Below, in pieces: positions 9,179 to 35,742 of a stretch of 36,087 bases of DNA; the stretch's first letter is position 1; each line of letters begins with the position of its first letter. Position numbers and translations under genes: made by a program. This stretch comes from Phaeodactylibacter luteus (GTDB lineage: Bacteria > Bacteroidota > Bacteroidia > Chitinophagales > Saprospiraceae): positions 1 through 36,087 of the forward strand of contig NZ_VOOR01000051.1 in NCBI RefSeq assembly GCF_007993045.1. Direction: 5' to 3'. The notes beneath the pieces were generated by a model. It made no database searches and was not told the DNA's origin. It saw nothing but the letters and a program-made list of their open reading frames with translations.

Positions 9179-9370
9179 GGGCGCAAACCAGATTGTCATT
9201 TTTTTGGAGGGCCTGCCCCTGCCTGCGGACAGGTGCCGCTATGCTACGGGGCTCGCTGCCCGCTCGGCCCTGTCGGGCTTGCCACCCCTTCGCAGCGCTA
9301 GGCCGATGCCAGGCTGTCAGGCTATAAAGCCCGAAAAGCATAAATGCCTGCGATATTTTGGTTTACGCCC
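9179..9370 (+). repeat. Dispersed GC-rich palindromic repeat, copy A
   Basis: The fullest copy of a family found five times in this window. It starts GGGCGCAAACCAG, runs through CCTGCCCCTGCC, GCTATGCTACGGGGCTCGCT, CGCAGCGCTAGGCC and GCCTGCGATATTTT, and ends TTTACGCCC. The first hairpin (CCTGCC, four-base loop, GACAGG, around 9222-9233) has one mismatch here; the second is GCCC-TGTC-GGGC. It fills most of the gap between the phosphatase start and the dprA stop. Open frames crossing it are artefacts of the repeat. Just beyond it, CCCGGG boxes at 9381-9386 and 9413-9418 enclose a small GGCT/AGCC stem. Confidence 0.85.
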
Positions 9371-9484
9371 GGGTGTCTTTCCCGGGAGGGGGCTGTTTTG
9401 TAGAGCCAACTGCCCGGGAGGACATCAAAGATACTCTGCTGAGTTTATGGAACACAAATTTCCAGCGGCTTATTCCGTTGAGGC

Positions 9485-10585
9485 TTAGGCCAACAGCGTG
9501 TACCTTTTGCCCGGCAATGATTTTATCAGCCCTTTGAACTCGAGTTCTAGCAAATCTGCTGCCATTTTTTGTGGGCTGCGCTGTAGCTGGTGCACCAATT
9601 CGTCAATGCTTCTGTTCTCTTTTTCTTTGAGCAGTTGTACTACGGCATCTTCCTCTGGAGAAAGGTCAGGGAAGAGGGCCTGTTGAATACCATGGCCGGG
9701 CTTTTTTTCTTCCCATTGCATCACGTAGGCTAGGTCTCTAGCCTGTTCAATCAGGGAAGCACGGTGGCTTTTGATGAGCAGGTTGCACCCTTCTGTACTG
9801 CGTTCCTTGGGGCGCCCTGGCACGGCAAAAACATCTTTGTGGTAGTCATTGGCCATTTGAGCACTGATCATGGACCCACCCTTGCGCTGTGTTTCTACGA
9901 CAATGAGCGCATCACACAGGCCAGCGATAATGCGGTTGCGCATAGGGAAGCGCTCGCGGTCGGGCGGTGTCGGGCTGGGGTATTCCGACAATACGCCTCC
10001 TGCCTCCATCATTTCCCTTGCAGTATGGATGTGCTGTGGCGGGTAGATATGCCTAAGCCCGTGGGCTACGACCCCGATTGTGGGTATGTTCATGGCCAGG
10101 GCCGTACGGTGGGCGGCAACGTCGATGCCATAAGCCAGCCCGCTGATGATGGTCACTCCATATGCCTGAAGGCCCTCCACAATCTCCTCACAGGCCCTGA
10201 CCCCTTGGGGTGTGGGTTTTCGGGTGCCAACAATGGCAACACTGCGTTCTGGGTTGAGGCTGGCTTCCCCCTTGTAGTAAAGCATAGGGGGGGCATCGGG
10301 CAGGTGGCTGAGCCGTTTGGGGTAGCCCTTATCCAGATAAAACACTGGCTGTATGCCATTTTCCGTCATAAAGGCTATTTCTTGGTCAGCCAGGTCTAAA
10401 AGGTCCGGTTGCCGGATGTGGGAAACGATTTGTTCTCCTATACCAGGCACGGTAGCGAGCATTTTAGGGCTGGCCTCAAACACGGCACGGGCACTTCCGC
10501 AATAGCTCATCAGGTTGCGGGCTTTCACTGCACCAACTTTGGGGATGAGGGTGAGCGCAACGCGGAAGCGAAGATCATCTGACAT
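9485..10585 (-). CDS. dprA: DNA-processing protein DprA
   Basis: DprA binds incoming single-stranded DNA during natural transformation and loads RecA onto it. The 366-residue protein shows the expected order: an N-terminal helix-hairpin-helix-like region (LIPKVGAVKARNLM and TVPGIGEQI), a central Rossmann-type domain with VAIVGTRKPT (about 115-124), SGLAYGIDVAAH and MRNRIIAGL, followed by GGSMISAQMA and FAVPG, and a C-terminal winged-helix segment (about 300-366) ending GLIKSLPGKRYTLLA. All core motifs are intact, so it should be functional. It is a single gene with a good Bacteroidota promoter about 180 bases upstream, implying a long leader. No other competence genes are in the window, so I cannot say whether the organism is transformable. 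Confidence 0.95.
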   Translation of the reverse strand: MSDDLRFRVALTLIPKVGAVKARNLMSYCGSARAVFEASPKMLATVPGIGEQIVSHIRQPDLLDLADQEIAFMTENGIQPVFYLDKGYPKRLSHLPDAPPMLYYKGEASLNPERSVAIVGTRKPTPQGVRACEEIVEGLQAYGVTIISGLAYGIDVAAHRTALAMNIPTIGVVAHGLRHIYPPQHIHTAREMMEAGGVLSEYPSPTPPDRERFPMRNRIIAGLCDALIVVETQRKGGSMISAQMANDYHKDVFAVPGRPKERSTEGCNLLIKSHRASLIEQARDLAYVMQWEEKKPGHGIQQALFPDLSPEEDAVVQLLKEKENRSIDELVHQLQRSPQKMAADLLELEFKGLIKSLPGKRYTLLA

Positions 10586-10761
10586 GTGCGATATAGTCGA
10601 AAGGTGGAGTGGGGGCGTATACGAGTGGGAACCGGGCTGTACCCGTTAGTCATCATTGAGGGGCACTGCTTTTTGTGCAGTGGGCATTTTCCACCAAGTG
10701 GCTAAAAAAACGTGCATTAACCAATTCGCTTTTCAAAAATCATAAGGTTTCTGCACTTTTG

Positions 10762-10791
10762 CAAATATATGCCCGACAAAGTGTGCCACAA
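10762..10791 (-). promoter_or_regulatory. Bacteroidota-type promoter for dprA
   Basis: On the minus strand the -33 TTG (10789-10791) is followed after 19 bases by the -7 box TATATTTG (10762-10769), matching the TTG-N19/20-TAnnTTTG consensus. Predicted transcription starts near 10755, leaving a leader of about 170 bases before the dprA ATG. Confidence 0.6.
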
Positions 10792-10831
10792 GCTTGGGGC
10801 AAGTGGCCAGAAAGATTAAAGCCTGAAAACG

Positions 10832-11359
10832 ATGAGTGAAAAAAAGAGTGTACTGCCCAAAGTAGAAATCCTGATTATCGGGGTGTTTTTTATGGCTTTT
10901 GCAGCCTGGGCCATTTCCCGTTGCTCTGCTACAAGCAATGCTTATGAAGAAGAGGCCCGCCTATTGGATGCTGAACAAGCGAAAGCAGATTCTATCGCAG
11001 CAGCTGAAGCTGGCCTCATCCCCGAATATCAGCCCAAGGATACCCTGCTAGCCAGGGAGGCTGAAAGCCCGACAGCTCCTCCGGGCGAAGCTTATACTCC
11101 TTTATATGTCGTCACTCCCGCCCTAAACCTTAGGACTGGCCCCGGGCTGAAATACAAAGTGCTGGAGCGGCTTGCATTGCATGATGAAGTGGCCTTCCTC
11201 AATGAGGTGACCGATACAACACAGCTGATCGACCTGGGGGACATCATCGCCGAAGAGCCTTGGGTAAAAGTCCGCTCGGCCAATGGAAAAGAGGGCTGGG
11301 TTTTTGGCGCTTGTGTAGACTATTACAAACATACCTTGGAAGGAGTGGAGGTGGATTGA
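10832..11359 (+). CDS. Membrane-anchored SH3-domain protein
   Basis: A 175-residue protein with a short cytoplasmic N-terminus, one membrane segment (about residues 11-29, VEILIIGVFFMAFAAWAI), a charged linker rich in Glu, Ala and Pro (about 38-88), and a C-terminal bacterial SH3 domain (about 92-170: YVVTPALNLRTGPGLKYKVL, then EPWVKVRSANGKEGWVFG). Bacterial SH3 domains of this type usually bind peptidoglycan or cell-wall peptides, so a periplasmic envelope role is inferred; no catalytic domain is attached. The gene is divergent from dprA. A small perfect hairpin with no U tract covers its stop codon. The exact function is unknown. Confidence 0.8.
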   Translation: MSEKKSVLPKVEILIIGVFFMAFAAWAISRCSATSNAYEEEARLLDAEQAKADSIAAAEAGLIPEYQPKDTLLAREAESPTAPPGEAYTPLYVVTPALNLRTGPGLKYKVLERLALHDEVAFLNEVTDTTQLIDLGDIIAEEPWVKVRSANGKEGWVFGACVDYYKHTLEGVEVD

Positions 11360-11375
11360 GGCTTTCAGAGCCTCA
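11357..11375 (+). other. Small hairpin over the SH3 gene stop
   Basis: TGAGGCT (11357-11363, containing the TGA stop) pairs perfectly with AGCCTCA (11369-11375) around a five-base loop. There is no U tract, so it is a weak terminator candidate at best. Confidence 0.35.
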
Positions 11376-11620
11376 TCAGGCTTGCCGTGGGACAGGTGGC
11401 TCCGGGCCTATGCTTTCGCCTTTAGAAGACATACCTATAGGATTATTTTGGCTTCTTGTTTTTGGCCTAGCGCCCGGGGCTAAGCTCTGCCCATAGCCTG
11501 AAGGGCTACTCTGCAAGCCAAAGGCCTAGCGCCACCGGCGTTTGGCCCTTGCCGTTTGGCAAAGCACCCAAGCCGGCAGCAGGCCCCTTTCTGGTATTTC
11601 TCAAACAGGTGCATGAACCA
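11376..11620. other. GC-rich intergenic region with internal repeats
   Basis: Between the converging SH3 and glucosaminidase-like genes lies a GC-rich stretch with no supported gene. GGCCTAGCGCC occurs twice about 58 bases apart (near 11467 and 11525), and short inverted repeats such as TTGCC-GTTT-GGCAA follow. The GGCCTAGCGC word also occurs in the dispersed palindromic repeat, reverse strand, so this may be a decayed relative, but I cannot align it fully. Confidence 0.35.
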
Positions 11621-12352
11621 TCATTCAAGCCCGTAACGGTCAATAACTGCTAAGAGCTGCCGGGCCAGTTCTGGCTCGGCAGAAAAGCCTTTTTGCTCAA
11701 GCGCTTCTGCCCAGCCCTTAATATCAGAAGAAGGGATCTGCTGCAAGGGGCTGTAGGTACCTGTTGTAATGAAAAAGCTGTGGTCGCGGAAGCTAGTCCA
11801 TGCATTATGGTACTGCCTTAGGCAACGGCCATCGTAGTTTTTTTGTTCTCCCTGCCAATCCGGAGTGCAGGGGATCAGGAAGTGGTTGTTGCGCCCTTCT
11901 TTCGCCCAAAGCGCTTCGCCTGCTTGGCTGTGCAGCAGGGCATTAGCTAGGATGATAGCAGCAGGGATGCCGAATTTCTCCTGTTCTTGTTTGGCCACCT
12001 TGCCAAACCGCTCGATGTACTGTTCAACCGTCGCCTTGTTGAGATCGGCTAAGCGCCCAAAAGCGGTAGGCTGAGCGCGGCCGCCCCCTGCACCGCTGAA
12101 GTCGAAACGGTCTGTTGCAGAAAGGGAGGAGGAAAAGCCTGGCCCTTGATCGGGACCTTCGGTATAGCGCTCCACTTTCACCTGTTTTTCCGGCACAGCG
12201 GGGGCTTCTTGCCTTGGGGTCGCCGGGGTATTCAGGTTTAAGTTAAAGCTTAGGTCTTTTCTCAGTGCAATGAATGCGAGGATTGAGATGATGCCTATTT
12301 TTAGGGCATTGCGCCGGAGGAAGGGCTGAATGTGTAATCGTAGAATTTCCAT
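11621..12352 (-). CDS. Glucosaminidase-fold (GH73-like) protein, catalytic Glu apparently missing
   Basis: Family members are peptidoglycan hydrolases (FlgJ/autolysin-type N-acetylglucosaminidases). The 243-residue protein has a membrane segment near residues 18-30, a Pro-rich linker (about 42-75) and the domain from about 108 to the end: YIERFGKVAKQEQEKFGIPA, GRNNHFLIPC, YHNAWTSFRDHSFFI, IKGWAEALEQKGF. In active members the helix after IPA reads roughly LAQ-x-ILESG-x-G, with the Glu as general acid; here it reads LANALLHSQAGEA, placing His141 where Glu is expected. It may therefore be inactive, use a nearby Glu (146 or 152), or only bind glycan. I chose the ATG at 12352 because the longer frame needs a TTG start inside AT-rich promoter-like sequence. 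Confidence 0.82.
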   Translation of the reverse strand: MEILRLHIQPFLRRNALKIGIISILAFIALRKDLSFNLNLNTPATPRQEAPAVPEKQVKVERYTEGPDQGPGFSSSLSATDRFDFSGAGGGRAQPTAFGRLADLNKATVEQYIERFGKVAKQEQEKFGIPAAIILANALLHSQAGEALWAKEGRNNHFLIPCTPDWQGEQKNYDGRCLRQYHNAWTSFRDHSFFITTGTYSPLQQIPSSDIKGWAEALEQKGFSAEPELARQLLAVIDRYGLE

Positions 12353-12388
12353 GCGACAACATTTTGTTTCAATTACTTTCGTACACAA

Positions 12389-12396
12389 CAAATATA
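12389..12396 (-). promoter_or_regulatory. Candidate -7 box of the glucosaminidase-like gene
   Basis: TATATTTG on the minus strand matches the Bacteroidota -7 consensus TAnnTTTG and lies about 37 bases before the ATG in an AT-rich stretch. No well-spaced -33 TTG is evident, so the call is tentative. Confidence 0.4.
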
Positions 12397-12440
12397 AATC
12401 AAAAAGTTTTTAAATGGAATAAATGAAACAAATAGTTGTT

Positions 12441-12477
12441 AAAAAAAAAGCGCGCTTCCCTGTCAAGAGAAGCGCGC
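12441..12477 (-). terminator. Rho-independent terminator of the trans-sulfuration gene
   Basis: On the minus strand GCGCGCTTC pairs perfectly with GAAGCGCGC (12469-12477 with 12450-12458) and is followed by nine T residues (12441-12449). It lies 49 bases beyond the stop of the PLP enzyme gene and separates it from the glucosaminidase-like gene. Confidence 0.92.
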
Positions 12478-12525
12478 ATTTACTGGGATCATAGCAGGTT
12501 AAGCGCTCTAAATATGCGCTTGGCT

Positions 12526-13671
12526 CTACAGCTGGCCCAATGCATGTTTGAGGTCTTGCTGCAGGTCCTCCACATCTTCTACCCCTACGCTAAGTCGGAT
12601 AAGAGAGTCGGTCAGCCCCACTTTTAACCGTTCAGCACGGGGTATAGAAGCGTGTGTCATTGAGGCAGGGTGGCCGATGAGCGATTCTACGCCCCCGAGG
12701 GATTCGGCAAGCGTAAACAAGTGAGTGCCGCTGAGGGCCTTGACCGCATCATCGAGCTTTCCTCCTTTCAGGTCGAAGGAGACCATTCCGCCGAACATAC
12801 GCATTTGCTTTTTTGCGGTTGTATGGCCAGGATGATCTGTAAAGCCAGGATAGTAGACCTGGTCTACTTGAGGCTGTGCTTTTAGGAATTCGGCAATCTG
12901 TGCAGCATTCTGGCACGCCCTCTCGACTCTAAGGTGGAGGGTCTTCGTGCCGCGGAGTACCAGGAAGCAATCCTGAGGCCCTGGCACAGCCCCTGCGGCA
13001 TTCTGGAAAAAGTGGAACTGCTCGGCGAGCTCATCCTGATTGGTGATCAAGGCGCCCAAGACCACATCTGAGTGGCCGCCGAGGTATTTGGTAGCTGAAT
13101 GCAGTACGATATCAGCTCCGAGGTCAAGTGGGTTTTGCAGGAAGGGCGAAGCAAAAGTGTTATCGACGCAGCTCCAGATCCCTTTCTCGCGGGCAAGTTG
13201 GCAGATGGCTTCAATATCGACAATATTGAGCATAGGGTTGGTGGGCGTCTCCACCCAAAAAAGGCGGGTTTTATCGTTGACAACGGCCTTCACTGCTTCC
13301 AGGTCATTGAGGTCGAGGAAGTGGGCTTTGATGCCATACTTGGCGTAGATCCGGGTCATGAGGCGGTAAGAGCCGCCGTAAAGGTCATTGGTGGAGATGA
13401 TCTCGTCTCCAGGGCTGAGGAGTTTGAGCACGGCATCCATAGCGGCCAGGCCTGACCCGAAGCAAATGCCATGCTTCCCGTTCTCCAGAGCGGCGAGGTT
13501 GGCTTCCAGGGCCGTCCGGGTGGGGTTTTGGGTACGGGCATATTCGTACCCTTTGTGCTGTCCCGGTGCGTCTTGTGCGTAGGTAGAGGTTTGGTAAATG
13601 GGGGTCATCACGGCGCCGGTGGTAGGGTCAGGGCTGACGCCAGCATGTATGGCTTTGGTTCCAAATTTCAT
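12526..13671 (-). CDS. Cystathionine gamma-synthase/lyase family PLP enzyme
   Basis: A cytoplasmic pyridoxal-phosphate enzyme of the Cys/Met metabolism family. It makes cystathionine from activated homoserine plus cysteine (MetB-like) or cleaves cystathionine to cysteine (gamma-lyase). The 381-residue length is typical. Visible motifs are YARTQNPTR (phosphate contact from the neighbouring subunit, about 44-52), FGSGLAAMDA, NDLYGGSYR with Tyr98, CVDNTFASP with Asp170, the PLP lysine Lys195 in HSATKYLGGHSDVVLG, and ESLGGVESL near the C-terminus. Sequence alone does not separate synthase from lyase, and no met or cys partner genes are adjacent, so I leave the symbol blank. It is a single gene with its own strong terminator. 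Confidence 0.9.
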   Translation of the reverse strand: MKFGTKAIHAGVSPDPTTGAVMTPIYQTSTYAQDAPGQHKGYEYARTQNPTRTALEANLAALENGKHGICFGSGLAAMDAVLKLLSPGDEIISTNDLYGGSYRLMTRIYAKYGIKAHFLDLNDLEAVKAVVNDKTRLFWVETPTNPMLNIVDIEAICQLAREKGIWSCVDNTFASPFLQNPLDLGADIVLHSATKYLGGHSDVVLGALITNQDELAEQFHFFQNAAGAVPGPQDCFLVLRGTKTLHLRVERACQNAAQIAEFLKAQPQVDQVYYPGFTDHPGHTTAKKQMRMFGGMVSFDLKGGKLDDAVKALSGTHLFTLAESLGGVESLIGHPASMTHASIPRAERLKVGLTDSLIRLSVGVEDVEDLQQDLKHALGQL

Positions 13672-13844: not shown

Positions 13845-13855
13845 TGCGCTAAGAG

Positions 13856-17452: not shown

Positions 17453-19243
17453 TTAGTTGGCTTGTTCCAGTTGCAACAAAGGGGCAACATATCCTGGGAA
17501 CATTGGGGTGATCGGTGTAGTGTACCGCTTGTGGATGGCCAAGCGGCCTGTGGGGACAATGAGGGGTACGATCGGCATCGCTTCGTATAGCTGTCGCTGA
17601 AGGTCAAGATATAATTTTTTGCGGTCTTCAGGATCGAGCGTTTGTTGGATCTGATCGATGAGGGCATCGGTCTCAGGAGTGGCGAACCCCGTGCGGTCGT
17701 CCCCTTCAGAGTGGAAATCCTGCTTGGGCTCCCAAGGTGTAGGGGGGATGCTTTTGGCGCCAGCCACCAGCTCAAAATCTCTGCGCTTGAGGTCGTCCAG
17801 ATTGACGGTGTGCTCCTGAGGGGTCAGCTTGATGCTGATGCCTGCACGCTTGGCGGATTCCTGTAGGATGAGGGCAATGTTCTGCCCTACAGCCCGGCCG
17901 GCAGTGAACTTGTATTCGAGCTCGAGCTCTGTGCGCTGCCCGTCAATTTCTTTGTCTACGATACCGTTGTCGTTGGTGTCCGTCCAGCCTGCCTCTTCCA
18001 GCAGCGCCCGTGCCTCTTCGGGGGCATACGCTAAGGGCTTTACAACAGGGTTGTAATAAGAAAAACTGGGGTGGACCGGGCCAGTAGATGGCTCTCCTAA
18101 GCCAGAGAAGGCCGTCTCTATCATGGTGCTCACATCGGTGGCCATAGCCAAGGCACGCCTCACCTTGGGGTCGTTCAGTTTGGGCGAACGCGTGTTGGTG
18201 TAAATGAAGGTGTGGACCAGGGATGGTGGCGTGTGAAGGTTGTAACGGCTGGTGACAAAATCGGTCTTCTGCAGGTCTAGGAACTGATCTGGCGGGATGT
18301 TGGGGAGGACGTCGAGCTGGCCATCTTTCAAGGCTGTAACGGCTGCGGTAGGGTCTTTTACAGGCCGGTAGATGAGCTTTTCAGGGTAAGCCTGAAGGGT
18401 CACAGACTGCCCCTTGGCCTGGTCGCCCCACCAGCCCTCTTTCCGGCTGAGGACCAGCCGCTGGCCGGTTTCCCAGCGCTCCAGTTTGTACGGCCCTGAG
18501 CCGGAAATGCCATTGGGCTCCCGGCTGTGGAAAGGGCTGGCAAATTGCTCTGCAAACTGTACGATGTTTTCATTGTCAGACAGTGCTTTTGCCCGTTCCT
18601 CGTCCATGAGGTCTGCCAGGGGGATATCGCTCATCAGGCCAAGGGAATCATAGTGATAGGCTGGCAGTATGGGCAGGGCGGCACTAATGGCCTCAGCTCC
18701 GATCATGTAAGGGCGGTTGGTATACACGGTGAAACGGCGGGGGTTGGCAGCGTCTTTTTCCACCTCCCCAATAAAGGAGAGGTAAACCCGGTAAGCTGGC
18801 GCAGGCACCTTCGGGTTGAATGTGGCCTTTAGGGTAAAGACGAAGTCATCCGCAGTTATGGGGCTGCCGTTGTCCCAAACCGCCTCGGGCCGGATCTCAA
18901 AAGTATAAGCTACCCCACCGGCAAAGGGCCCTTCTTCAATAGGAGTAATATCTGGCTGTGACACGGCCAACTGCGGCTCCAGTTCCATTGTTTCTGGGTT
19001 GATGGACTGCAGGTAAGAGAACAGGTTGCCGATCACCGTATTGGAGTAGTTGCTCAGCGTCAAGACCGGGTTCAGCCGGTCGGGCTCCGTATCCAATTGC
19101 AGTACAGCTTCTGTTGCCGGCCGTTCGAGCCCATAGTCATCAGTTGGGGTTTCCTTTTTTTCTTTAGGTTCTCCTGCACAGCTCCAAATGAGGGCAAAGG
19201 AAAGCGCCAGTGGCAGGTAGCGGAGGGTAATCTTCATGTTCAT
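17453..19243 (-). CDS. Peptide ABC transporter substrate-binding lipoprotein (second of a pair)
   Basis: A family 5 extracellular solute-binding protein that captures peptides and hands them to the OppB/OppC-type permeases. The product (596 residues) has a hydrophobic signal ending in ALIWSC, so a lipoprotein anchor is likely although Trp before Ser is unusual. Family blocks are DTEPDRLNPVL, LEPQLAVSQPDI, FEIRPEAVWDNGSPITADDF, ISGSGPYKLERWETGQRLVL, RRALAMATDV and EEARALLEEAGWTDTNDNGIVD; the last contains a DxNxNGxxD calcium-type loop. It is clearly paralogous to the adjacent upstream gene over its full length. Start codons at 19243 and 19237 are both possible. Substrate specificity cannot be read from sequence. 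Confidence 0.93.
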   Translation of the reverse strand: MNMKITLRYLPLALSFALIWSCAGEPKEKKETPTDDYGLERPATEAVLQLDTEPDRLNPVLTLSNYSNTVIGNLFSYLQSINPETMELEPQLAVSQPDITPIEEGPFAGGVAYTFEIRPEAVWDNGSPITADDFVFTLKATFNPKVPAPAYRVYLSFIGEVEKDAANPRRFTVYTNRPYMIGAEAISAALPILPAYHYDSLGLMSDIPLADLMDEERAKALSDNENIVQFAEQFASPFHSREPNGISGSGPYKLERWETGQRLVLSRKEGWWGDQAKGQSVTLQAYPEKLIYRPVKDPTAAVTALKDGQLDVLPNIPPDQFLDLQKTDFVTSRYNLHTPPSLVHTFIYTNTRSPKLNDPKVRRALAMATDVSTMIETAFSGLGEPSTGPVHPSFSYYNPVVKPLAYAPEEARALLEEAGWTDTNDNGIVDKEIDGQRTELELEYKFTAGRAVGQNIALILQESAKRAGISIKLTPQEHTVNLDDLKRRDFELVAGAKSIPPTPWEPKQDFHSEGDDRTGFATPETDALIDQIQQTLDPEDRKKLYLDLQRQLYEAMPIVPLIVPTGRLAIHKRYTTPITPMFPGYVAPLLQLEQAN

Positions 19244-19284
19244 GAAACAGGATTTATTGGCGACGAGGACCAAAGTTCAGCAAA

Positions 19285-19301
19285 CCCGGCCTGCGGCCGG
19301 G
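19285..19301 (-). other. Intergenic hairpin between the two binding-protein genes
   Basis: CCCGGCC (19285-19291) pairs perfectly with GGCCGGG (19295-19301) with a three-base loop, nine bases beyond the stop of the upstream gene on the minus strand? It actually sits in the middle of the 66-base gap 19244-19309. Only TTTG follows on the minus strand, so leaky termination or RNA stabilisation is likelier than complete termination. Confidence 0.6.
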
Positions 19302-19309
19302 GTATCTTT

Positions 19310-21106
19310 TTATTGGATGTTTTTTTGTTTGAAGTCATTGACAAAGAAGCCTGGCCGGCGGGCGGAGGTTTTGGCCTCAAACCGCTTGCTGATGGCGATG
19401 CGCTCCAATGGCGCAAATAGGAAAATATAGGGCTGCTCTTCATAGATCAACTCCTGGAATTTAAGGTAAAGTGCATTGCGCTTTTCTTCGTCCAGGGTCT
19501 CCCGGATCTCATCGATCAGGCGGTCGGCTTCCGCGTTGTTGAAACTCACCCGGTTGCCTCCGGAAGGGGTATCGCTCTCGGAATGCCAAAGCTGCTTGGG
19601 GTCGTCCACTACAGGGTCTTGCCCCCATGCACCGGCATACATGTCGTAATCACGGCGCTTGGCGTGGTCGGTCAGCACCGTAAACTCCTTGGGGGCGATG
19701 GTAATCTCCACACCGGCTTTACGGGCGTTATCTTGGAAAATGAGGGCCATATTATTGGCAAACTTGCTGCCCGCACTGATCATGTACTCGAGCGCTAGCT
19801 CTGTCGGCATTCCGTTGATGACCTTGTCCACGATGCCGTTGCCGTTGGTGTCTTCCCAGCCTGCCTCTGCGAGCAGCGCCCGTGCTTTTTCCGGGTTGTA
19901 GGCGATGAGCGGCAGCTCGTCATGGTAGTAAGGCTTGGTAGGGTGGAAAGGGCCTACTGTGCGCTGTGCCAGCCCGTAGTACAGGGTGTTGATGAGCTCG
20001 TCTACATCGAGGAGGTGTGCAATAGCCCTGCGCACCCTTTTATCTGCCAACTTCGGGTTCTTGTTGTTGAGCCCCACATAATAGTAAACCATAGATGGCG
20101 GAGTTTGGAGGGAAAACCTGCGCGTCATTTCCTCGTTCGCTTGGAGGTCGGTAAAGTCTTTGGCGTCGATTTGGCTGACTACATCCACCTGTTCGTCTTT
20201 GAGCGCAGCCATGGAGGCGACTTGGTCCGGTATGATCTTGAAGGATAGGTTTTGCGGGTAAGCGCTCAGCAGGGGATCGTTTGGGGCTATGCTTTCTCCC
20301 CACCAGCCCTCTTTTTTTTCGAGTACCAGTTCCTGCCCGGTCTCCCAGCGCACAAAGCGGTAAGGGCCCGATCCAGAAATAAAATCCTTCTCCCGGGAGT
20401 AGGGCGCGCTATTGAAGGCTTCCGCAAATGCTTGCAGCGCTTTAGACTCCTTGGCAAGGCGTGAGGCTTTTTCGGCGTCTGCCAGTTCGCTAAATGGGAT
20501 GTCGTCCAATAGCCCGGAAGGGTCGTAGACTGCCTTGGGCAAGACAGAGATATTACTGACCACAGGCTCGCCAATGATGTACTTTTCGTTGGTATACACG
20601 GTGAATGCCCTTGGGTTGGAAGGGTCGGTTTCAAAGCCGCTCACAAACTCCATGTAGGCGCGTACATGTGCAGCATTGACTAAGGGGTTGAAGATGGCTT
20701 TCATCGTGAAGGCCACATCTTCTGCCGTAATAGGGGAGCCATCGTCCCATACTGCTTCCTCCCGGATGTTGAACGTGTAGCCAACACCGCCTGCGTACTT
20801 CCCATCGGCTACTTCCCTTACGACAGGGCGGGCGGCTGCAAGCTGAGGCCGGAGCTCCAGGGTGTAGGGGTCAAAGTGGAGGAGGTTCTGAAAAATCTGT
20901 TCATTGATCGCCCGTGCATAGGCGCTTGTGGCCAGGATGGGGTTGAGGCGGTCGGGCTCTGCAGGGAAGCGTGCGAAAACTGTGTTGCTGGTTTGCTTGA
21001 AAACCAGGGCTGCCTGCTGACTGCCGCTGTCAGCATCGCTGCCACAGCTCACGGCAATAAACAACAACAAGAATAACCAGCTTTGATTTTGGGATGATAA
21101 TTTCAT
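19310..21106 (-). CDS. Peptide ABC transporter substrate-binding lipoprotein (first gene of the operon)
   Basis: First gene of the peptide import operon and full-length paralogue of the next one. The 598-residue protein has a lipoprotein signal ending in FIAVSC, a better lipobox than its paralogue's. Matching family blocks include FPAEPDRLNPILATSAYARA, FNIREEAVWDDGSPITAEDV, ISGSGPYRFVRWETGQELVL, RRAIAHLLDVDEL and EKARALLAEAGWEDTNGNGI, again with a calcium-type DxNxNGxxD loop, and it ends in a typical C-terminal lobe (LYLKFQELIYEEQPYIFLFA). The ATG at 21106 starts the signal peptide directly. The tandem pair suggests either two binding specificities sharing one permease or dosage; which is not resolvable here. 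Confidence 0.93.
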   Translation of the reverse strand: MKLSSQNQSWLFLLLFIAVSCGSDADSGSQQAALVFKQTSNTVFARFPAEPDRLNPILATSAYARAINEQIFQNLLHFDPYTLELRPQLAAARPVVREVADGKYAGGVGYTFNIREEAVWDDGSPITAEDVAFTMKAIFNPLVNAAHVRAYMEFVSGFETDPSNPRAFTVYTNEKYIIGEPVVSNISVLPKAVYDPSGLLDDIPFSELADAEKASRLAKESKALQAFAEAFNSAPYSREKDFISGSGPYRFVRWETGQELVLEKKEGWWGESIAPNDPLLSAYPQNLSFKIIPDQVASMAALKDEQVDVVSQIDAKDFTDLQANEEMTRRFSLQTPPSMVYYYVGLNNKNPKLADKRVRRAIAHLLDVDELINTLYYGLAQRTVGPFHPTKPYYHDELPLIAYNPEKARALLAEAGWEDTNGNGIVDKVINGMPTELALEYMISAGSKFANNMALIFQDNARKAGVEITIAPKEFTVLTDHAKRRDYDMYAGAWGQDPVVDDPKQLWHSESDTPSGGNRVSFNNAEADRLIDEIRETLDEEKRNALYLKFQELIYEEQPYIFLFAPLERIAISKRFEAKTSARRPGFFVNDFKQKNIQ

Positions 21107-21124
21107 GGCAGATGTGTTCTTCCT

Positions 21125-21159
21125 CAAAGGTAATGCTTTTTGGCGGGCTGCCCGTGCAA
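21125..21159 (-). promoter_or_regulatory. Candidate promoter of the opp operon
   Basis: On the minus strand TACCTTTG (21125-21132) fits the -7 consensus exactly; the nearest TTG-type -33 box (21157-21159) is 24 bases away, longer than usual. The predicted start lies about 12 bases before the first ATG. Confidence 0.45.
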
Positions 21160-27946: not shown

Positions 27947-28099
27947 GGGGCCTGCCCCTGCCTGATGGCAGGAGCCGCTATGCTACGGGGCTCGCTGTCC
28001 GCTCGGCCCTGTCGGGCTTGCCACCCCTTCGCAGCGCTAGGCCAATGCCAGCCTAAAGCTCGACAAGCATAAGCCCCTGCGGTATTTTGGATTACGCCC
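27947..28099 (+). repeat. Dispersed GC-rich palindromic repeat, copy C
   Basis: Forward copy starting 46 bases after the desuccinylase-like stop. It contains CCTGCC-TGAT-GGCAGG with perfect arms, GCTATGCTACGGGGCTCGCT, GCCC-TGTC-GGGC, CGCAGCGCTAGGCC and the tail CCTGCGGTATTTTGG then TTACGCCC. The GGGCGCAAACCAG start of copies A and D is missing. The remaining 130 bases to the aminotransferase gene hold a TATCTTTC string, one mismatch from a -7 box, close to the ATG. Confidence 0.85.
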
Positions 28100-30395: not shown

Positions 30396-33300
30396 ATGAA
30401 AAGAATAGCTTACTTGTTTTTTTGTGGCTTGTTGTCTTGGACATCCATAAACGCGCAGGAAACGCCCGCCCTTAATGCGGAAGGCTTGTTTGGCGACCTT
30501 TCTGCCCGCCACATCGGCCCGGCGCTGATGAGCGGCCGCATTACTGATTTGGAAGGGCACCCGACCAACTCCCGCATCCTCTACGCTGGGGCCGCCGGCG
30601 GCGGTGTCTGGCGCTCTAATGACGGAGGGATAACCTTCAATTCTATTTTTGATGATTACCCACAGTCCATAGGGGCTATTGAAGTTGACCCTACCGACCC
30701 TGACCTCAGCATTTGGGTGGGCACGGGCGAAACCTGGACCCGCAACAGCGTTTCCGTAGGCAAAGGCTTGTTCAAAACTACCGACGGGGGGCAGACTTGG
30801 AAGCTGATGGGGCTTGAAAACTCAGAGCGCATCAGCAGCATTTTGGTCAACCCAAATAACCCGAAGGAGGTTTTTGTTGGCGTCTTAGGCGCCTTATGGG
30901 GCGATAGCGAGGACCGAGGGGTCTACAAAACGGCAGACGGAGGGCAGAGCTGGGAGAAAATCCTTTATACCAATGCCACTACGGGCTGTGCAGATTTGGT
31001 GATGGCACCGGATGATCCTCAGACTTTGTATGCTTCCATGTGGGAGTTCCGCCGCACGGCCTGGTCTTTCAGTTCTGGAGGGCAGAGCAGTGCACTCTAC
31101 AAAAGCACCGATGGCGGTGCCACCTGGGCTAAAATCCATAATGGCTTTCCGGAAGGGAAGCTGGGGCGGATTGCTGTGGCAGTAGCCCCCTCCAACCCTA
31201 GCCGCCTTTATGCCGTGATTGAGTCGGAAAAAAACGAGGATAAAGGCTTGTACCGTTCTGATGATGCAGGGCAGTCTTGGGAGCATCTCAACAAAGATTT
31301 TGAGCTGACGGTACGGCCATTTTATTTCAGCCGTATTGTAGTATCGCCTGCCAATGCAGATAAGATTGCAAAAGCCGGCCTCAATGGCTCGATCAGCGAA
31401 GATGGCGGCAACACTTTCCGAGCCATCGGCAGCGGAGTCCACGCAGATGTCCACGATTTTTGGTTTGACCCCAATGACGCAGACCGCATGTACCTCGGCT
31501 GCGATGGGGGCGTATACCGCTCTTGGGACGGCGGCCGTGGATGGGAGATGGTCAAAGGCCTGCCGGTATCTCAGTATTATCACGTAGCCGTAGATATGCA
31601 GGAGCCCTTCCGTATTTATGGAGGTTTGCAGGACAATGGCTCTTGGGTAGGCCCTTCCCAAAGCGTAGGCGGCATCGAAGCCCGTGATTGGACAGAGGTT
31701 GGCTATGGCGATGGCTTCCGCGTTTACCCTCATCCAACAGATCCCAATATCTGCTACTCCGAAATGCAAGGGGCAGAGGCCATTTGGCGGGTAGACTTGG
31801 AAAAGCAGCAAAGCAAAATCATCAAGCCTTATCCGGAAAAAGGGAGCCCCGACCTCCGCTTCAATTGGAATACCCCAATTACGACCAGCGCACATCAGCC
31901 CGACCGGCTGTACGTGGGCAGCCAATTTGTCCACCGTTCTGATGACCGGGGGGAAACCTGGAAACGCATTTCCCCTGACCTTACAACCAATGACCCTGCT
32001 AAGCAGAACCAAGAGGACAGCGGCGGGCTGAGCAAAGACAATTCCGGTGCGGAAAACCACTGTACCATTTTTACCATTGCGGAGTCGCCGCTAAACGAGA
32101 AACTGATCTTTGTGGGTACAGATGATGGCAATGTTCAAAGGACTAAGGATGGCGGGCAGTCTTGGGTAGACCTCACTGCCAATTTCCCTGGCCTGCCCAA
32201 AAACACCTGGGCCTACCATATTGAGCCTAGCCATTTTGATGAAAATGTAGTCTATGCAGTTTTTGAAGGGCACACGCAAAATGACCATACGCCCTACGTA
32301 TACCGGTCCAAAGATGGGGGGCTGACCTGGCGCTCCATTACAACCCCTCAGCTAGAGGGCTTTGCCCGCTGCCTGCAGGAAGACCTGGCCAACCCCAACC
32401 TGCTTTACCTCGGTACCGAACTGGGGCTCTATATCACACTTGATGGCGGTCAAAACTGGGCCAAGTTCACCAATAATATGCCTGCCGTCGCAGTGCACCA
32501 CCTTACGCTGCACCCGCGCGATCACAGCTTGGTCATGGCTACGCACGGCCGTGGCATCATCATCATAGATGACGTTACCCCCCTCCGCAAGCTGACGCCA
32601 GAAATGGCTGCACAGGAGGTTGTCTTTATGGAACAGCCGGCTTCTGTGATTTACGAAGCGCCAAGCTTTGGGGGCAACGCAGCTTATGGCGAATTTGTGG
32701 GGGACAATCCCAGCCGTTCTGCCAAAGTGGTCTACTACCTGAAAAAGCGCCACATTTTTGGCCCCATGAAGCTCGAAGTATTGGACAGCAAAGGGGAGAA
32801 GATCGCAGAGCTTACCCCTGGAAAATCCAAAGGCATCAATATCGTCCCTTGGAATTACCGCTATCGTATGCCGAAAGTGGCTAAAGCCAAAACCTTCTCC
32901 CGTGGCGGTTTTGCTGCGCCTACTGTGCCTCCGGGCGTGTATACCCTGCGGATGGCCAAGGGCAAAACAACTTACGAGTCTACTCTGGAGCTGATAGCTG
33001 ACCCCGCCTCTGTGCATACCGCTGAAGAGCGCCTGGCTCAGCATGAAACAGCCATGCAGCTTTATGCGATGAATGAAGAGCTGGCCTACTTGGTCGATCA
33101 GCTTGATCAGGTATCTGCAGGGGTATCGCAACGGCTGGAAGCTGAAGCGCCTAAGAAGCTGAAGCAGGAGCTCATAGGCTATCAGGGAGCTCTCGAAAAA
33201 TTGCGGGAAGGCTTGGTAGTCACCACAGGGGATAACTACGTGGGCGCCGCAGCCCCTCAATTGCGGGAGCGCATGGGGTCATTGTATAGTGAAGTGGTAG

Positions 33301-33491
33301 GGTACGCTGGCCGCCCTTCCAATGCTCAAATGGACAACTTGGCCCTCCTCAAAGGGGAGCTGCAACAAGCAACTGAGGAGGCTGGGCAGCTGATGGGGCA
33401 GCTGCAAACGCTCAACAAGAAGTTGGCGGCCAACGGGCTGGAAGCCCTGAGCTTCCGTTCGAAAGAAGAATTTATGGAAGCTGACCAATAG
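30396..33491 (+). CDS. Secreted VPS10/sortilin-type BNR repeat protein
   Basis: A 1031-residue exported protein with a signal peptide (RIAYLFFCGLLSWTSINAQ) followed by a large repeat region, about 30-720, built from Asp-box (BNR) units such as VWRSNDGGITF, LFKTTDGGQTWKLMG, VYKTADGGQSWEKI, LYKSTDGGATWAKI, LYRSDDAGQSWEHL, VHRSDDRGETWKRI and VYRSKDGGLTWRSI. These form beta-propellers as in sortilin/VPS10 and sialidase-like proteins. A beta-sandwich-like part and a Gln/Glu-rich helical tail (about 870-1031) follow. Databases often label this family glycosyl hydrolase, but I see no catalytic glycosidase residues, so ligand binding is the safer reading. It has no recognisable type IX secretion C-terminal domain, hence a periplasmic location is likely. 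Confidence 0.9.
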   Translation: MKRIAYLFFCGLLSWTSINAQETPALNAEGLFGDLSARHIGPALMSGRITDLEGHPTNSRILYAGAAGGGVWRSNDGGITFNSIFDDYPQSIGAIEVDPTDPDLSIWVGTGETWTRNSVSVGKGLFKTTDGGQTWKLMGLENSERISSILVNPNNPKEVFVGVLGALWGDSEDRGVYKTADGGQSWEKILYTNATTGCADLVMAPDDPQTLYASMWEFRRTAWSFSSGGQSSALYKSTDGGATWAKIHNGFPEGKLGRIAVAVAPSNPSRLYAVIESEKNEDKGLYRSDDAGQSWEHLNKDFELTVRPFYFSRIVVSPANADKIAKAGLNGSISEDGGNTFRAIGSGVHADVHDFWFDPNDADRMYLGCDGGVYRSWDGGRGWEMVKGLPVSQYYHVAVDMQEPFRIYGGLQDNGSWVGPSQSVGGIEARDWTEVGYGDGFRVYPHPTDPNICYSEMQGAEAIWRVDLEKQQSKIIKPYPEKGSPDLRFNWNTPITTSAHQPDRLYVGSQFVHRSDDRGETWKRISPDLTTNDPAKQNQEDSGGLSKDNSGAENHCTIFTIAESPLNEKLIFVGTDDGNVQRTKDGGQSWVDLTANFPGLPKNTWAYHIEPSHFDENVVYAVFEGHTQNDHTPYVYRSKDGGLTWRSITTPQLEGFARCLQEDLANPNLLYLGTELGLYITLDGGQNWAKFTNNMPAVAVHHLTLHPRDHSLVMATHGRGIIIIDDVTPLRKLTPEMAAQEVVFMEQPASVIYEAPSFGGNAAYGEFVGDNPSRSAKVVYYLKKRHIFGPMKLEVLDSKGEKIAELTPGKSKGINIVPWNYRYRMPKVAKAKTFSRGGFAAPTVPPGVYTLRMAKGKTTYESTLELIADPASVHTAEERLAQHETAMQLYAMNEELAYLVDQLDQVSAGVSQRLEAEAPKKLKQELIGYQGALEKLREGLVVTTGDNYVGAAAPQLRERMGSLYSEVVGYAGRPSNAQMDNLALLKGELQQATEEAGQLMGQLQTLNKKLAANGLEALSFRSKEEFMEADQ

Positions 33492-33501
33492 CAGCTTTGA
33501 A

Positions 33502-33684
33502 GGGCGTGGGCTAAAATGTCGCAGGCGTTTATCTTTTCTGGGCTCTAGCCGGGCATTGGCCTAGCGCTGCGAAGGGGTGGCAAGCCCGACAGGGCCGAGC
33601 GAAGAGCGAGCCCCGCAGCATAGCGGCACCTGCCCTTAGGCAGGGGCAGGCCCCCTCCAAAAAACGACTATCTGGTTTGCGCCC
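33502..33684 (-). repeat. Dispersed GC-rich palindromic repeat, copy D
   Basis: A full-length reverse-strand copy between the converging VPS10-type and uracil-DNA glycosylase genes. It shares both outer ends with copy A: GGGCGCAAACCAGATAGTCG at the start and GCCTGCGACATTTT...CGCCC at the end. The first hairpin is CCTGCC-TAAG-GGCAGG (perfect arms, third loop variant) and the second GCCC-TGTC-GGGC. One arm of the terminator at 33704-33739 lies just outside. Confidence 0.85.
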
Positions 33685-33703
33685 GCTTTGAAACATAGCG
33701 GAT

Positions 33704-33739
33704 CAAAGGCCTTGGCTCGTTCGGCAGTCAAGGCCTTTG
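33704..33739. terminator. Bidirectional-type terminator hairpin
   Basis: CAAAGGCCTTG (33704-33714) pairs perfectly with CAAGGCCTTTG (33729-33739), 11 bp with a 14-base loop, 22 bases beyond the uracil-DNA glycosylase stop. T-rich sequence is limited on both sides. It probably ends the minus-strand gene and could also stop reading from the VPS10-type gene. Confidence 0.65.
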
Positions 33740-33761
33740 TCATATTAATAGATGATCAGTG

Positions 33762-34346
33762 TCATTGGCCTTTGCCCAAGATTTGGCTTACTTGCTCTTG
33801 CAGGTAGGGAACGGCCTCCTGCTCAAACCAAGGGTGCTGTTTAAGCCAGCGGTTGTTCAATGGGGAAGGGTGGGGCAGGGGGATGGCCTCCGGTCCATAC
33901 TCCCGAAACGCACGCACGGTCTCCGTAAGGTTGCGTTTGCGCTCTTTTCCAAGGTAGTACCGCTGGGCGTACTGCCCAATGTACAAGCGGAGCTTAGCCT
34001 GCGGCATAAACTCCAGACATTGAGCATGCCACTTTGGGGCACAGGCAGCCGGAGGTGGCAAGTCCCCCGATGAAGCCTTGCCCGGGTAACAGAAGGCCAT
34101 GGGCAAAATAGCAAAGTGCTCGGGCGTGTAGAATTCTGCAGCTGTAACGCCAAGCCACTGCCGCAGGCGGGCACCGCTCGGGTCTTTGAACGCAACCCCT
34201 TTCGAGTGGGCTATCCGGCCCGGAGCTTGGCTGATGAGCAGTATTTTAGCAGCGGGGTGGAGCTGGAAAATCGGCTTTGGCCCCAAGGCCAGCTCCCGGG
34301 CGCAATGTGTGCAGCCTCCGATAAGGTGGGGCAAAGGTGTGGGCAT
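33762..34346 (-). CDS. Uracil-DNA glycosylase family protein
   Basis: A small member of the uracil-DNA glycosylase superfamily (COG1573-like), which removes uracil from DNA to start base-excision repair. The 194-residue protein has the N-terminal CTHC pair (Cys12, Cys15), the glycosylase motif LLISQAPGR (about 36-44), a conserved ILPMAFCYPGKASSGDLPPP block (about 80-99), CAPKWHAQC, LYIGQYAQRYYLG (about 121-133) and the DNA-binding loop PHPSPLNNRWLKQHPWFE (about 159-175). Whether the cysteines hold an iron-sulfur cluster, as in family 4 enzymes, is uncertain. The gene is divergent from the DUF2007-msrB-msrA cluster across 89 bases. Confidence 0.9.
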   Translation of the reverse strand: MPTPLPHLIGGCTHCARELALGPKPIFQLHPAAKILLISQAPGRIAHSKGVAFKDPSGARLRQWLGVTAAEFYTPEHFAILPMAFCYPGKASSGDLPPPAACAPKWHAQCLEFMPQAKLRLYIGQYAQRYYLGKERKRNLTETVRAFREYGPEAIPLPHPSPLNNRWLKQHPWFEQEAVPYLQEQVSQILGKGQ

Positions 34347-34435
34347 AAGCCTTCATTTTGGTGCAGGCGATAACATCCTTTAGGTTTTCAGTGTTTAAAG
34401 AGTGCGAACTTAATAACCTTTAAAATTAAAACCTC

Positions 34436-34654
34436 ATGAAAGAAGATTGGGTAAAAGTATTCGAATCCACCGAAATTTTTAAAACCAAACTGGTGGAAGA
34501 TGCATTAAAACAGGAAGGTATCGAAAGCCATATCCTACAGCGCCCGGACAGCGCGATACCTTCTCTTGGCTCAGCGACGCTGTATACCCCAAGAGAAAAG
34601 GCCGAGAAGGCTATGGCCGTGATCAAGGAAATTGATTTTTCCGCGGCTTCCTAA
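34436..34654 (+). CDS. DUF2007 family small protein
   Basis: A 72-residue cytoplasmic protein of the DUF2007 (putative signal-transducing) family. It follows the family pattern of a beta-alpha-beta fold: [20 protein letters not shown] then [18 protein letters not shown] and [18 protein letters not shown]. These proteins resemble PII-like or ferredoxin-like small domains and have no established function. It is the first gene of a compact plus-strand cluster, with 29 bases to msrB, and probably shares its message. The AT-rich upstream region (34381-34435) likely holds the promoter, but I found no exact consensus box. Confidence 0.88.
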
Positions 34655-34683
34655 ACAGGGCGCCGGGCCGAAAACAGAAGCGC

Positions 34684-35064
34684 ATGAAAGATAAAGCCAA
34701 TTGGAACAAACTGTCTGCCGAAGAAGAGCGGATAATCGTACACAAAGGGACGGAGCGCCCGTTTTCTGGTATCTACAACGATCATAAGGAAAAAGGGACA
34801 TACGTCTGCCGGCGTTGCGAAGCACCACTCTACCGCTCTGAAGATAAATTCTCTTCAGGCTGTGGGTGGCCTAGTTTCGATGACGAAGTGCCCGGTGCCG
34901 TACGCCGAGAGACAGACGCAGACGGGCGCAGGGTGGAAATTCTTTGTGGGAATTGTGGCGGGCACTTAGGCCATGTCTTTACCGGGGAGCGTTTCACCGC
35001 TAAAAATACCCGGCATTGCGTAAATGCAATTTCTTTGAAGTTTATCCCTGCACAAGATGCCTGA
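34684..35064 (+). CDS. msrB: Peptide-methionine (R)-S-oxide reductase MsrB
   Basis: MsrB reduces the R form of methionine sulfoxide in proteins, repairing oxidative damage with electrons from thioredoxin. The 126-residue protein is the single-domain size. It has the structural zinc pairs CRRC (Cys42, Cys45) and CGNC (Cys88, Cys91), the recycling Cys60 in [11 protein letters not shown], the GGHLGHVF motif, and the catalytic Cys112 in [12 protein letters not shown], so the whole catalytic set is intact. There is no signal peptide, so it is cytoplasmic. Its last eight bases overlap the start of msrA in another frame, pointing to coupled translation of the two stereo-specific repair enzymes. Confidence 0.96.
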
Positions 35065-35560
35065 TGGCCCGCTCTACGAGAAGGCCGCTTTTGCCTGCGG
35101 GTGCTTCTGGAGCAAGCAGTACCACTTTGATCGCCTCCCCGGTGTAGTTTCTTCCCTGACAGGGTACACTGGGGGGCATCTGCCCAATCCTACCTACCAA
35201 CAGGTTTGTACAAAAACGACTGGGCACGCCGAAGCAGTGGAAGTGGTTTTTAATCCCAGGCAGCTCTCTTTCGAAGCGCTGTGCCGGTTCTTTTTTCAGC
35301 TCCATGACCCTGGCAGAGACCGCAGGGGCAAAGGTGGGCAGTACCGGTCTGCTATTTTCTGCTACAGTACGGCCCAACTGCACACCGCCCGGCAGCTCAT
35401 CGGTTTGCTGCAAGCAGGCGGGCAGGCAATTTTTACCGAGCTAAGCCCGGCAGACGTCTTCTGGCCAGCGGAGCCCCGCCACCAAAAGTATTGCGAGCGC
35501 CACAACCGAGCACCAGCTAATGGGCCTACTGCCTATCATTGCGGTGATGCAAAGGCGTAG
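35057..35560 (+). CDS. msrA: Peptide-methionine (S)-S-oxide reductase MsrA
   Basis: MsrA reduces the S form of methionine sulfoxide, complementing MsrB. The 167-residue protein has the catalytic Cys16 in ACGCFWSKQ, the substrate-side [14 protein letters not shown] with Tyr47, Glu59 in TGHAEAVEV, Asp84 in [10 protein letters not shown] and Tyr96 in QYRSAIF. The usual GCFWxxE pattern is GCFWSKQ here, so Gln21 replaces a commonly conserved Glu that is not itself the catalytic acid. A possible recycling Cys lies near the C-terminus (KYCERHN or YHCGDAKA). The ATG overlaps the msrB end by eight bases. Repeat copy E starts 65 bases after the stop, and no classical terminator is seen before it. Confidence 0.95.
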
Positions 35561-35625
35561 GAGAGGGCTCGCCCGCTTCGCCGACGCAAGGCAGACGGTC
35601 ATTTCCTTTCCCCTACACTATGTGA

Positions 35626-35742
35626 GGGGGCCTACCCCTGCCAAACGGCAGGGGTCGCTATGCTGCGGGGCTCGCTCTTCGCTCGGCCCTATCGGGCTTC
35701 CCACCCCTCCGCAGCGCTAGTCCGGTTATATTGGCCTACGCC
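35626..35742 (+). repeat. Dispersed GC-rich palindromic repeat, copy E (internally shortened)
   Basis: Forward copy after msrA. The first hairpin is longest here: CCCCTGCC-AAAC-GGCAGGGG, a perfect 8-bp stem with a fourth loop variant. GCTATGCTGCGGGGCTCGCT and GCCC-TATC-GGGC follow, then GCAGCGCTAG, after which about 45 bases present in copy A are missing and the tail TATATTGGCCTACGCC resumes. That retained tail confirms the 3' boundary of the family. Confidence 0.8.

What the first reader, a model, noticed from the sequence alone, without database searches (positions are those of the whole stretch)
9179..35742. Five copies of a GC-rich intergenic repeat whose hairpin arms are kept while loops vary
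Copies at 9179, 21436 (reverse), 27947, 33502 (reverse) and 35626 share long blocks such as GCTATGCTACGGGGCTCGCT and CGCAGCGCTAGGCC. The first hairpin has arms CCTGCC/GGCAGG in four copies with loops TGAT, TAAG, CGAT and AAAC, and copy E extends both arms together to 8 bp. A second hairpin GCCC/GGGC has loops TGTC or TATC. Arms conserved with changing loops suggest selection on structure. All copies lie between genes, about one per 7 kb, in both orientations. Candidates are a REP/BIME-like element moved by a dedicated transposase, a 3'-end RNA stabiliser or a gyrase/HU binding site.
Basis: seen in the sequence. Interest (0 to 1): 0.75.

Follow-up and report, generated by a model that had tools for sequence, protein, structure and literature searches.

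The report
Shape-conserved DNA repeat with swappable hairpins
A short intergenic DNA repeat, present hundreds of times in this bacterium and in some of its relatives, keeps an almost unchanging core and a common folded shape while whole hairpins inside it are exchanged as blocks; in this genome many copies carry the ends of a small transposon.

Summary
The five copies are real: the core occurs 713 times (<=2 mismatches) in the 6.0-Mb draft genome, its reversed control 0. In this genome many copies are MITEs: 27 of 59 sampled copies have both inverted ends, with an 8-bp target duplication (identity 0.80 vs 0.27 shuffled). The interior is older: a covariance model finds it in 47 of 298 family genomes but 3 of 395 across the phylum; helices covary. 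Saprospira G057 has roughly 1,100 copies, without inverted ends or target duplication, starting after a T-tract. Sites are shared between species, but hairpins change as blocks: 48 paired double changes, 0 one-sided changes that stay paired. Here the core stays intact after insertion (0 of 594 sites changed vs 16 of 176 in target duplications). A RAYT or TnpB partner, a terminator role and gene-orientation preference were tested and not supported. The transposase and the function are unknown. Best reading: a DNA-level multi-hairpin element renewed by block exchange, with a constrained core; a structured RNA is the main rival.

The parts
9179..9370 (+). Copy A: complete MITE-like unit, both inverted ends (192 bp)
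   Evidence: end motifs with 1 mismatch each
9171..9178 (.). Copy A left target duplication GTGTGTCT
   Evidence: 7 of 8 match right flank
9371..9378 (.). Copy A right target duplication GGGTGTCT
9208..9304 (+). Copy A structured module (P1-P5, core at 9238)
   Evidence: model R1 89.4 bits
21455..21572 (-). Copy B structured module, long P3 form
   Evidence: model R1 101.3 bits
21605..21624 (-). Copy B 5' terminal repeat; no 3' terminal repeat found
   Evidence: 2 mismatches; best 3' match has 10
27947..28043 (+). Copy C structured module
   Evidence: model R1 93.7 bits
28080..28099 (+). Copy C 3' terminal repeat; no 5' terminal repeat found
   Evidence: 3 mismatches; best 5' match has 9
33502..33684 (-). 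Copy D: complete MITE-like unit, both inverted ends (183 bp)
   Evidence: 1 and 3 mismatches
33494..33501 (.). Copy D target duplication, perfect (TTCAAAGC read on the minus strand)
   Evidence: 8 of 8
33685..33692 (.). Copy D target duplication, other side
   Evidence: 8 of 8
33558..33654 (-). Copy D structured module
   Evidence: model R1 93 bits
35627..35723 (+). Copy E structured module, 9-bp P2 arms, no recognisable terminal repeats
   Evidence: model R1 91.7 bits; ends at 7 mismatches each

Best explanation
It is a DNA element with a conserved multi-hairpin fold: outer helix P1, adjacent hairpin P2 of variable length, a near-invariant core in helix P4 with internal loops, mini-hairpin P5, and hairpins P3a/P3b. 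It is largely confined to the bacterial family that holds Saprospira. SHOWN: the fold covaries; copies are intergenic; in this genome many copies sit in a MITE with inverted ends and 8-bp duplications; in Saprospira the free-standing form starts just after a T-tract, sits at the same sites in related species, and has hairpins replaced as whole paired blocks. INFERRED: (1) the standalone module once landed in the T-tract near the end of a TIR element and was amplified with it in the lineage of this genome; (2) renewal happens in DNA, by short-tract exchange between copies and by template switching at hairpins, so both arms change together; (3) the core is held by selection after insertion, most likely because a protein recognises it in the folded or duplex element. 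The function that is selected is not known.
For: MITE: 27 of 59 copies with both ends; 8-bp duplication identity 0.796 vs 0.271, 11 perfect vs 0.36 expected per shuffle; lengths 3-7 and 9-11 near control. Fold: on a MAFFT alignment of 38 copies 103 double-change cells vs 31.5 in shuffles (0/500), slid controls 8-24; on 22 loci of 22 genomes 127 vs 35.3, all 7 helices. Restriction: 47 of 298 family genomes, 3 of 395 across the phylum. Sites: in Saprospira G057/G260 52 of 56 testable sites have an orthologous model hit, and alignments show element-like sequence at the other four. Blocks: 48 paired double changes, 0 one-sided changes that stay paired, 11 one-sided broken, 4 double broken, 1,429 unchanged; 41 block changes in 47 parsed pairs, in 25 both alleles also occur in other sampled copies. 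DNA level: leaving out a fixed G.T pair, G.T is not in clear excess of A.C (20/13, 2/14, 16/26, 6/16); no gene-orientation preference. Core: 0 of 594 core and anchor sites changed in 22 copies whose target duplications differ at 16 of 176 sites.
Against: No transposase for the inverted ends: 0 PF12762 and 0 PF01609 matches in the draft genome; other families not tried. How the standalone form spreads is unknown: no duplication, no inverted ends, no clean empty site. A fixed G.T pair in P3a, a second P2 pair with 13 G.T of 36 in one alignment, and conserved unpaired positions suit an RNA. Core constraint could be homogenisation by exchange. My automatic test for inverted hairpins found 0; one loop inversion was seen by eye only. 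The structure was drawn by me from these copies, and the alignments and 68 are fitted to the model; both lean towards it. Window copies other than E fold no better than shuffles. 32 of 59 copies lack one or both recognisable ends.
Confidence: 0.55

Rival explanations
1. A structured non-coding RNA or mRNA element: each copy is transcribed, folds as RNA and acts on neighbouring messages or in trans; covariation reflects RNA selection.
For: Covariation in all helices; conserved unpaired core; one fixed G.T pair in P3a; some copies fold far better than shuffles (RNA z -6.27, -3.39, -3.56).
Against: Random direction relative to tandem genes; no clear excess of G.T over A.C elsewhere, and 0 one-sided changes that stay paired between orthologues; the opposite strand folds slightly better on average (own copies -57.8 vs -54.4 kcal/mol); very high and patchy copy number.
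Confidence: 0.25
2. An ordinary MITE without further function: hundreds of copies derived from a transposon, structure incidental.
For: Inverted ends and 8-bp duplication; intergenic; patchy distribution, e.g. 0 or 1 hits in three congeners.
Against: The interior occurs in other genera without those ends with covarying fold; the core does not decay with the duplications.
Confidence: 0.1
3. A DNA-uptake-like or recombination signal: competent cells favour fragments with the core, which both preserves the core and supplies fragments for exchange between copies.
For: High copy number, near-invariant core, genus-level core variants, swapped interiors at fixed sites.
Against: Does not explain conserved pairing across genera; competence was not examined.
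Confidence: 0.07
4. A REP/BIME-type element mobilised by a Y1 (RAYT) transposase.
For: The one Y1 gene found here lies between two outward-pointing copies; many relatives have Y1 genes.
Against: Other hairpin arrays adjoin that gene; Y1 in 32 of 47 element-positive genomes vs 209 of 298 overall; at four further Y1 loci the nearest element is 311-1,352 bp away; MITE ends and duplication here.
Confidence: 0.03

Closest known systems
[quoted passage not shown]
   Same: Short, inverted ends, 8-bp target duplication in this genome.
   Different: The interior is conserved in sequence and fold across genera and occurs elsewhere without the ends; the core does not decay after insertion.
REP / BIME / REPIN elements with RAYT transposases (PMC2817692 abstract; PMC3733652 abstract and passages)
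   Same: Many copies, intergenic, hairpins, both orientations.
   Different: A branched fold of about 95-150 nt or more rather than a 20-40-bp tagged palindrome; starts TTTT|GGG in Saprospira; no link to a Y1 gene found.
BOX, ERIC and Correia elements (recalled, not tested)
   Same: Modular or TIR-bounded structured intergenic repeats.
   Different: No sequence comparison was made; I do not recall block replacement of hairpins at fixed sites for them.
Template-switch evolution of hairpins (PMC8794818, abstract and start of the introduction seen)
   Same: Both arms change together in one event.
   Different: Many replaced hairpins also occur in other copies, so exchange between copies is probably involved too.

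Membership tests
MITE | terminal inverted repeats | tested here: met
   this genome: both ends in 27 of 59 copies, one end in 26, none in 6; no shared ends seen in the Saprospira flanks
MITE | target-site duplication of fixed length | tested here: met
   8 bp with a sharp peak; 22 of the 27 match at 5 or more of 8 bases; no duplication signal in Saprospira
MITE | ends shared with an autonomous transposon | tested here: inconclusive
   no PF12762 or PF01609 match in the draft genome; other families not searched
REP/BIME (RAYT-mobilised) | short palindrome with a GTAG or CGTC tag | tested here: not met
   branched fold of about 95-150 nt; Saprospira boundary TTTT|GGGGC
REP/BIME (RAYT-mobilised) | cognate Y1 gene flanked by the repeat | tested here: not met
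   other arrays adjoin the Y1 gene here; no association over 298 genomes
Structured RNA family | covarying conserved secondary structure | tested here: met
Structured RNA family | match to a described Rfam family | tested here: not met
   no match in the window at gathering score; nothing over the elements in three loci at E<=1
Structured RNA family | transcription of one strand | not testable with these tools
   no expression data; direction relative to genes random
Intrinsic terminator | GC-rich hairpin followed by a T-tract | tested here: not met
   Saprospira: TTTT within 12 nt downstream in 6 of 65 copies, upstream in 48 of 65
TnpB guide-RNA element | TnpB gene in carrier genomes | tested here: not met
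   PF07282 in 11 of 298 genomes; 3 of the 47 element-positive ones
IscB/HEARO-type element | IscB gene or HEARO RNA match | tested here: inconclusive
   no HEARO match; IscB not searched
DNA uptake sequence | preferential uptake of DNA with the motif | not testable with these tools
   needs a competent strain; competence genes not searched

The most novel reading that the evidence does not exclude
A previously undescribed kind of genomic element: hundreds to about a thousand position-stable, folded DNA units whose hairpins are cassettes exchanged between sites while base pairing and a near-invariant core are kept, the core being the recognition site of an unknown protein. Exchange across the genome, not single compensatory mutations, drives its covariation.
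Probability: 0.3. Interest if true: 0.85.

Novelty: new variant of a known kind. Interest (0 to 1): 0.7.

Why it matters
Covariation is usually read as evidence of RNA function. Here paired arms change together as blocks, in natural replicates of about a thousand copies at sites shared by related species, so the origin of compensatory change (selection, template switching or exchange between copies) becomes countable. It also shows a structured module expanding with a MITE to hundreds of copies in one lineage while three sampled congeners have 0 or 1 model hits. For annotation, covariance tools would take such a family for an ncRNA. In Saprospira it fills much of the intergenic DNA: in 200 kb of G057, 61 scored copies lie in 60 intergenic regions, and there are 79 intergenic regions of at least 150 bp.

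Tried and rejected
Y1/RAYT partner: own genome, 298 family genomes, and four further Y1 loci. TnpB partner. IS1595 and DDE_Tnp_1 transposases as the MITE's driver: none found. Terminator role. Strand bias along the Saprospira chromosome: the capped listing showed only plus-strand hits beyond 2.1 Mb, although its totals are 83 and 86; fetching those regions showed both strands (53 plus, 59 minus), so that was a listing effect. Target duplication in Saprospira: longest shared word 6.19 vs 6.10 in shuffled pairs. Recurrent neighbour gene: six loci read by eye showed none. Known RNA family: none. Plasmid collection: no match. Literature: seven searches showed no paper on this repeat; the Saprospira grandis Lewin genome paper is not held, so a mention there cannot be excluded.

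Limits: gene calls come from my own hexamer script, which missed at least the ORF 35057-35560. Own-genome stretches were partly chosen around known hits, so their density is biased; 713 is a whole-genome count. The Saprospira figure extrapolates 51 model hits in ten 20-kb stretches set at roughly even spacing (L225-L234). Dropped rows: 3 own copies at stretch edges; 9 of 65 Saprospira elements untestable; 5 of 52 pairs unparsed; 1 of 65 flanks. At most 12 candidates per genome were scored, so its copy numbers are lower bounds. One of the 22 loci (L114) is also in the training alignment (as L082). In one search pairs with over 30% G.T were left out: the fixed P3a pair, and in alignment A5 also a P2 pair.
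Full report
OBSERVATION. The five copies exist at the stated places. The 20-base core GCTATGCTACGGGGCTCGCT is found 713 times with up to two mismatches in the 6.01-Mb draft genome, the reversed pattern never. In a sample of 432,775 bases (window plus 20 stretches) there are 62 core copies: 42 exact, 19 with one mismatch, 1 with two and none with three or four. The model built later also gives 62 hits in that sample.

WHAT IT IS IN THIS GENOME. Side by side, many copies begin GGGCGCAAACCAGATTGTCG and end like CGACATTTTGGTTCACGCCC, an inverted repeat. Of 59 copies examined (3 at stretch edges dropped), 27 have both ends, 20 only the 5' end, 6 only the 3' end and 6 neither. Flanking 8-mers match at 0.796 identity against 0.271 for shuffled pairs; 11 are perfect against 0.36 expected; 22 of 27 match at five or more bases; lengths 3-7 and 9-11 lie near control. 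These are MITEs, 26 of the 27 measuring 179-249 bp and one 399 bp. Window copies A (9179-9370) and D (33502-33684) are complete; B has only the 5' end, C only the 3' end, E neither. No transposase was found with PF12762 or PF01609; the draft has 301 contigs and other families were not tried.

THE INTERIOR IS OLDER THAN THE MITE. The core with its hairpins recurs in other genera without these ends. Constrained folding of 114 copies suggested a common fold: P1, P2, the core in P4 with a 3x3 internal loop, P5, P3a and P3b. On a MAFFT alignment of 38 copies, with the structure drawn by me, 92.4% of cells pair; there are 103 double-change cells against 31.5 in shuffles (0 of 500) and 8-24 with slid partners, though further pair types (27) do not exceed the shuffles (30.2). 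Model R1 hits 47 of 298 family genomes (28 of 112 genera) and 3 of 395 drawn from the phylum: the own genome, one more of the family and a weak one of another family. Of three congeners of the window's genome one has a single hit and two none; G291, a congener of Saprospira grandis, is not among the 47. On 22 loci from 22 genomes all seven helices covary, 127 double-change cells vs 35.3 (fitted to the model).

SAPROSPIRA. In G057 (main contig 4,345,237 bases) the model finds 65 hits in 200 kb and 112 in a further 400 kb. Ten stretches at roughly even spacing hold 51 hits in 200 kb, about 1,100 per genome by extrapolation. The 5' boundary is sharp: 62 of 64 copies have T at position -2 before the element, and there is no target duplication. 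Among 17 further loci the T-rich boundary is common but not universal. By my own gene calls all 62 own and 65 Saprospira copies are intergenic against 14.8% and 14.5% for random placement. Direction relative to tandem genes is random (23 vs 20, 18 vs 19). In the own genome 4 of 57 scored copies lie in divergent regions, which hold 20.7% of intergenic bases; in Saprospira 13 of 61 against 26.2%.

BLOCK RENEWAL AT FIXED SITES. G057 and G260 are 96.3% identical over 184 kb aligned. Of 65 elements 56 could be tested; 52 have a model hit at the orthologous site, and alignment shows element-like sequence at the other four, in one case a different form. Mean element identity (0.936) is like that of the flanks (0.928), but 9 of 52 elements lie at least 10 points below their own flanks and 11 are identical. 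At paired columns 1,429 are unchanged, 48 changed on both sides and stayed paired, none changed on one side and stayed paired, 11 changed on one side and broke, 4 changed on both sides and broke, 107 were unpaired in G057 and 13 had gaps (fitted alignment). Of 47 parsed pairs 12, 13, 9, 9 and 4 have 0, 1, 2, 3 and 4 of the modules P2, P5, P3a, P3b changed. Besides 33 small changes there are 41 block changes: both alleles occur in other sampled copies in 25, one in 10, neither in 6. Six sites aligned in four Saprospira genomes are occupied in all four with mosaic interiors; one copy is cut down by a deletion in G216. The matching regions are 93-94% identical between G057 and G151 in their main parts and mostly 81-91% between G057 and G216.

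DNA OR RNA. With pairs above 30% G.T left out (a fixed P3a pair; in one alignment also a P2 pair), G.T against A.C is 20/13, 2/14, 16/26 and 6/16: no clear excess, as would be expected if pairs changed through G-U. The opposite strand folds slightly better on average (own copies -57.8 vs -54.4 kcal/mol). With random gene orientation this favours events in DNA: exchange between copies, and template switching as described by Monttinen and Loytynoja (PMC8794818, abstract and start of the introduction seen). One loop inversion, TTT to AAA (L087:9965), was noticed by eye; the automatic test counted none. Against: the fixed G.T pair and the conserved unpaired core would suit an RNA. Window copies other than E are not more stable than shuffles; of five copies from elsewhere three are clearly so (RNA z -6.27, -3.39, -3.56) and two less so (-1.47, -1.83).

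CORE UNDER CONSTRAINT. Leaving out the free position 9, the core differs from consensus at 2 of 1,116 sites and the 3' anchor at 1 of 558 over 62 own copies. In 22 copies with clear duplications, core plus anchor differ at 0 of 594 sites, while the duplications differ at 16 of 176 (Fisher p 1.1e-7) and the inverted ends at 30 and 50 of 440. P2 loops come in 26 kinds among 51 parsed copies. So the core is kept after insertion, by selection or by exchange limited to it.

PARTNERS TESTED. The one Y1 gene found here lies between two copies, but other hairpin arrays adjoin it and are its likelier cognates. At four further Y1 loci of carriers the nearest element is 311-1,352 bp away. Y1 genes occur in 209 of 298 genomes and in 32 of the 47 element-positive ones, by my reading of the lists. 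TnpB occurs in 11 of 298 and in 3 of the 47. Saprospira copies are rarely followed by a T-tract (6 of 65; upstream 48 of 65).

VERDICT. A structured, modular intergenic element, nearly confined to one family; in this genome it is carried by a MITE. The description is well supported, renewal in DNA is likely, the selected function is unknown. Seven searches showed no report of it, but the Saprospira grandis Lewin genome paper could not be read.

Noticed in passing
window 7850-8016: A second dispersed repeat, 167 bp with inverted ends TAGTGCCTYAAGCCATAAATC; it recurs in the genome sample and in several copies directly abuts or replaces the 3' part of the element.
   Followed up: partly
L046, about 7867-8710 (around the one Y1 transposase gene found in the genome): A REP-like array (CCGTCCTTACAGGACTG, CGTCCCTCCGGGACTTGG, TTCCGTAGGAACGG and CGTTCGTAAGAGCG units) stands as direct copies on both sides of the Y1 gene and is almost absent from the rest of the sample.
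   Followed up: partly
L087 5286 and 6361 (Saprospira G057): Plain perfect hairpins of the type TTTTGGGGCCCGCGGCCAGC-loop-GCTGGCCGCGGGCCCCAAAA look like P1 plus P2 without the core module.
   Followed up: no
L087, L089, L097, L103 and other Saprospira loci: A second subfamily with core like GGGCTGTGTCGTGGCTCGC and 3' end CCCTCAGCC; some copies are followed by a further shared module AGATTTAATCGCGCTGCTTTG.
   Followed up: no
L206-L209 against L095 and L105: Some copies carry a nested insert GGTTACTCCCTTCGGTCGTCGAACTGCGG...CCTTGTTGTC at the junction before the core, in some Saprospira genomes only.
   Followed up: no
L077, L079, L084 (MAG Saprospiraceae CSSed162cmB_533): P2 hairpins are long, nearly perfect inverted repeats that differ in sequence from copy to copy.
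   Followed up: no
window 17453-21127: Two adjacent paralogous ORFs (606 and 605 aa) that read like extracellular solute-binding proteins; stretches of 142 and 62 bp repeat at 75% and 71% identity. No family search was made.
   Followed up: no
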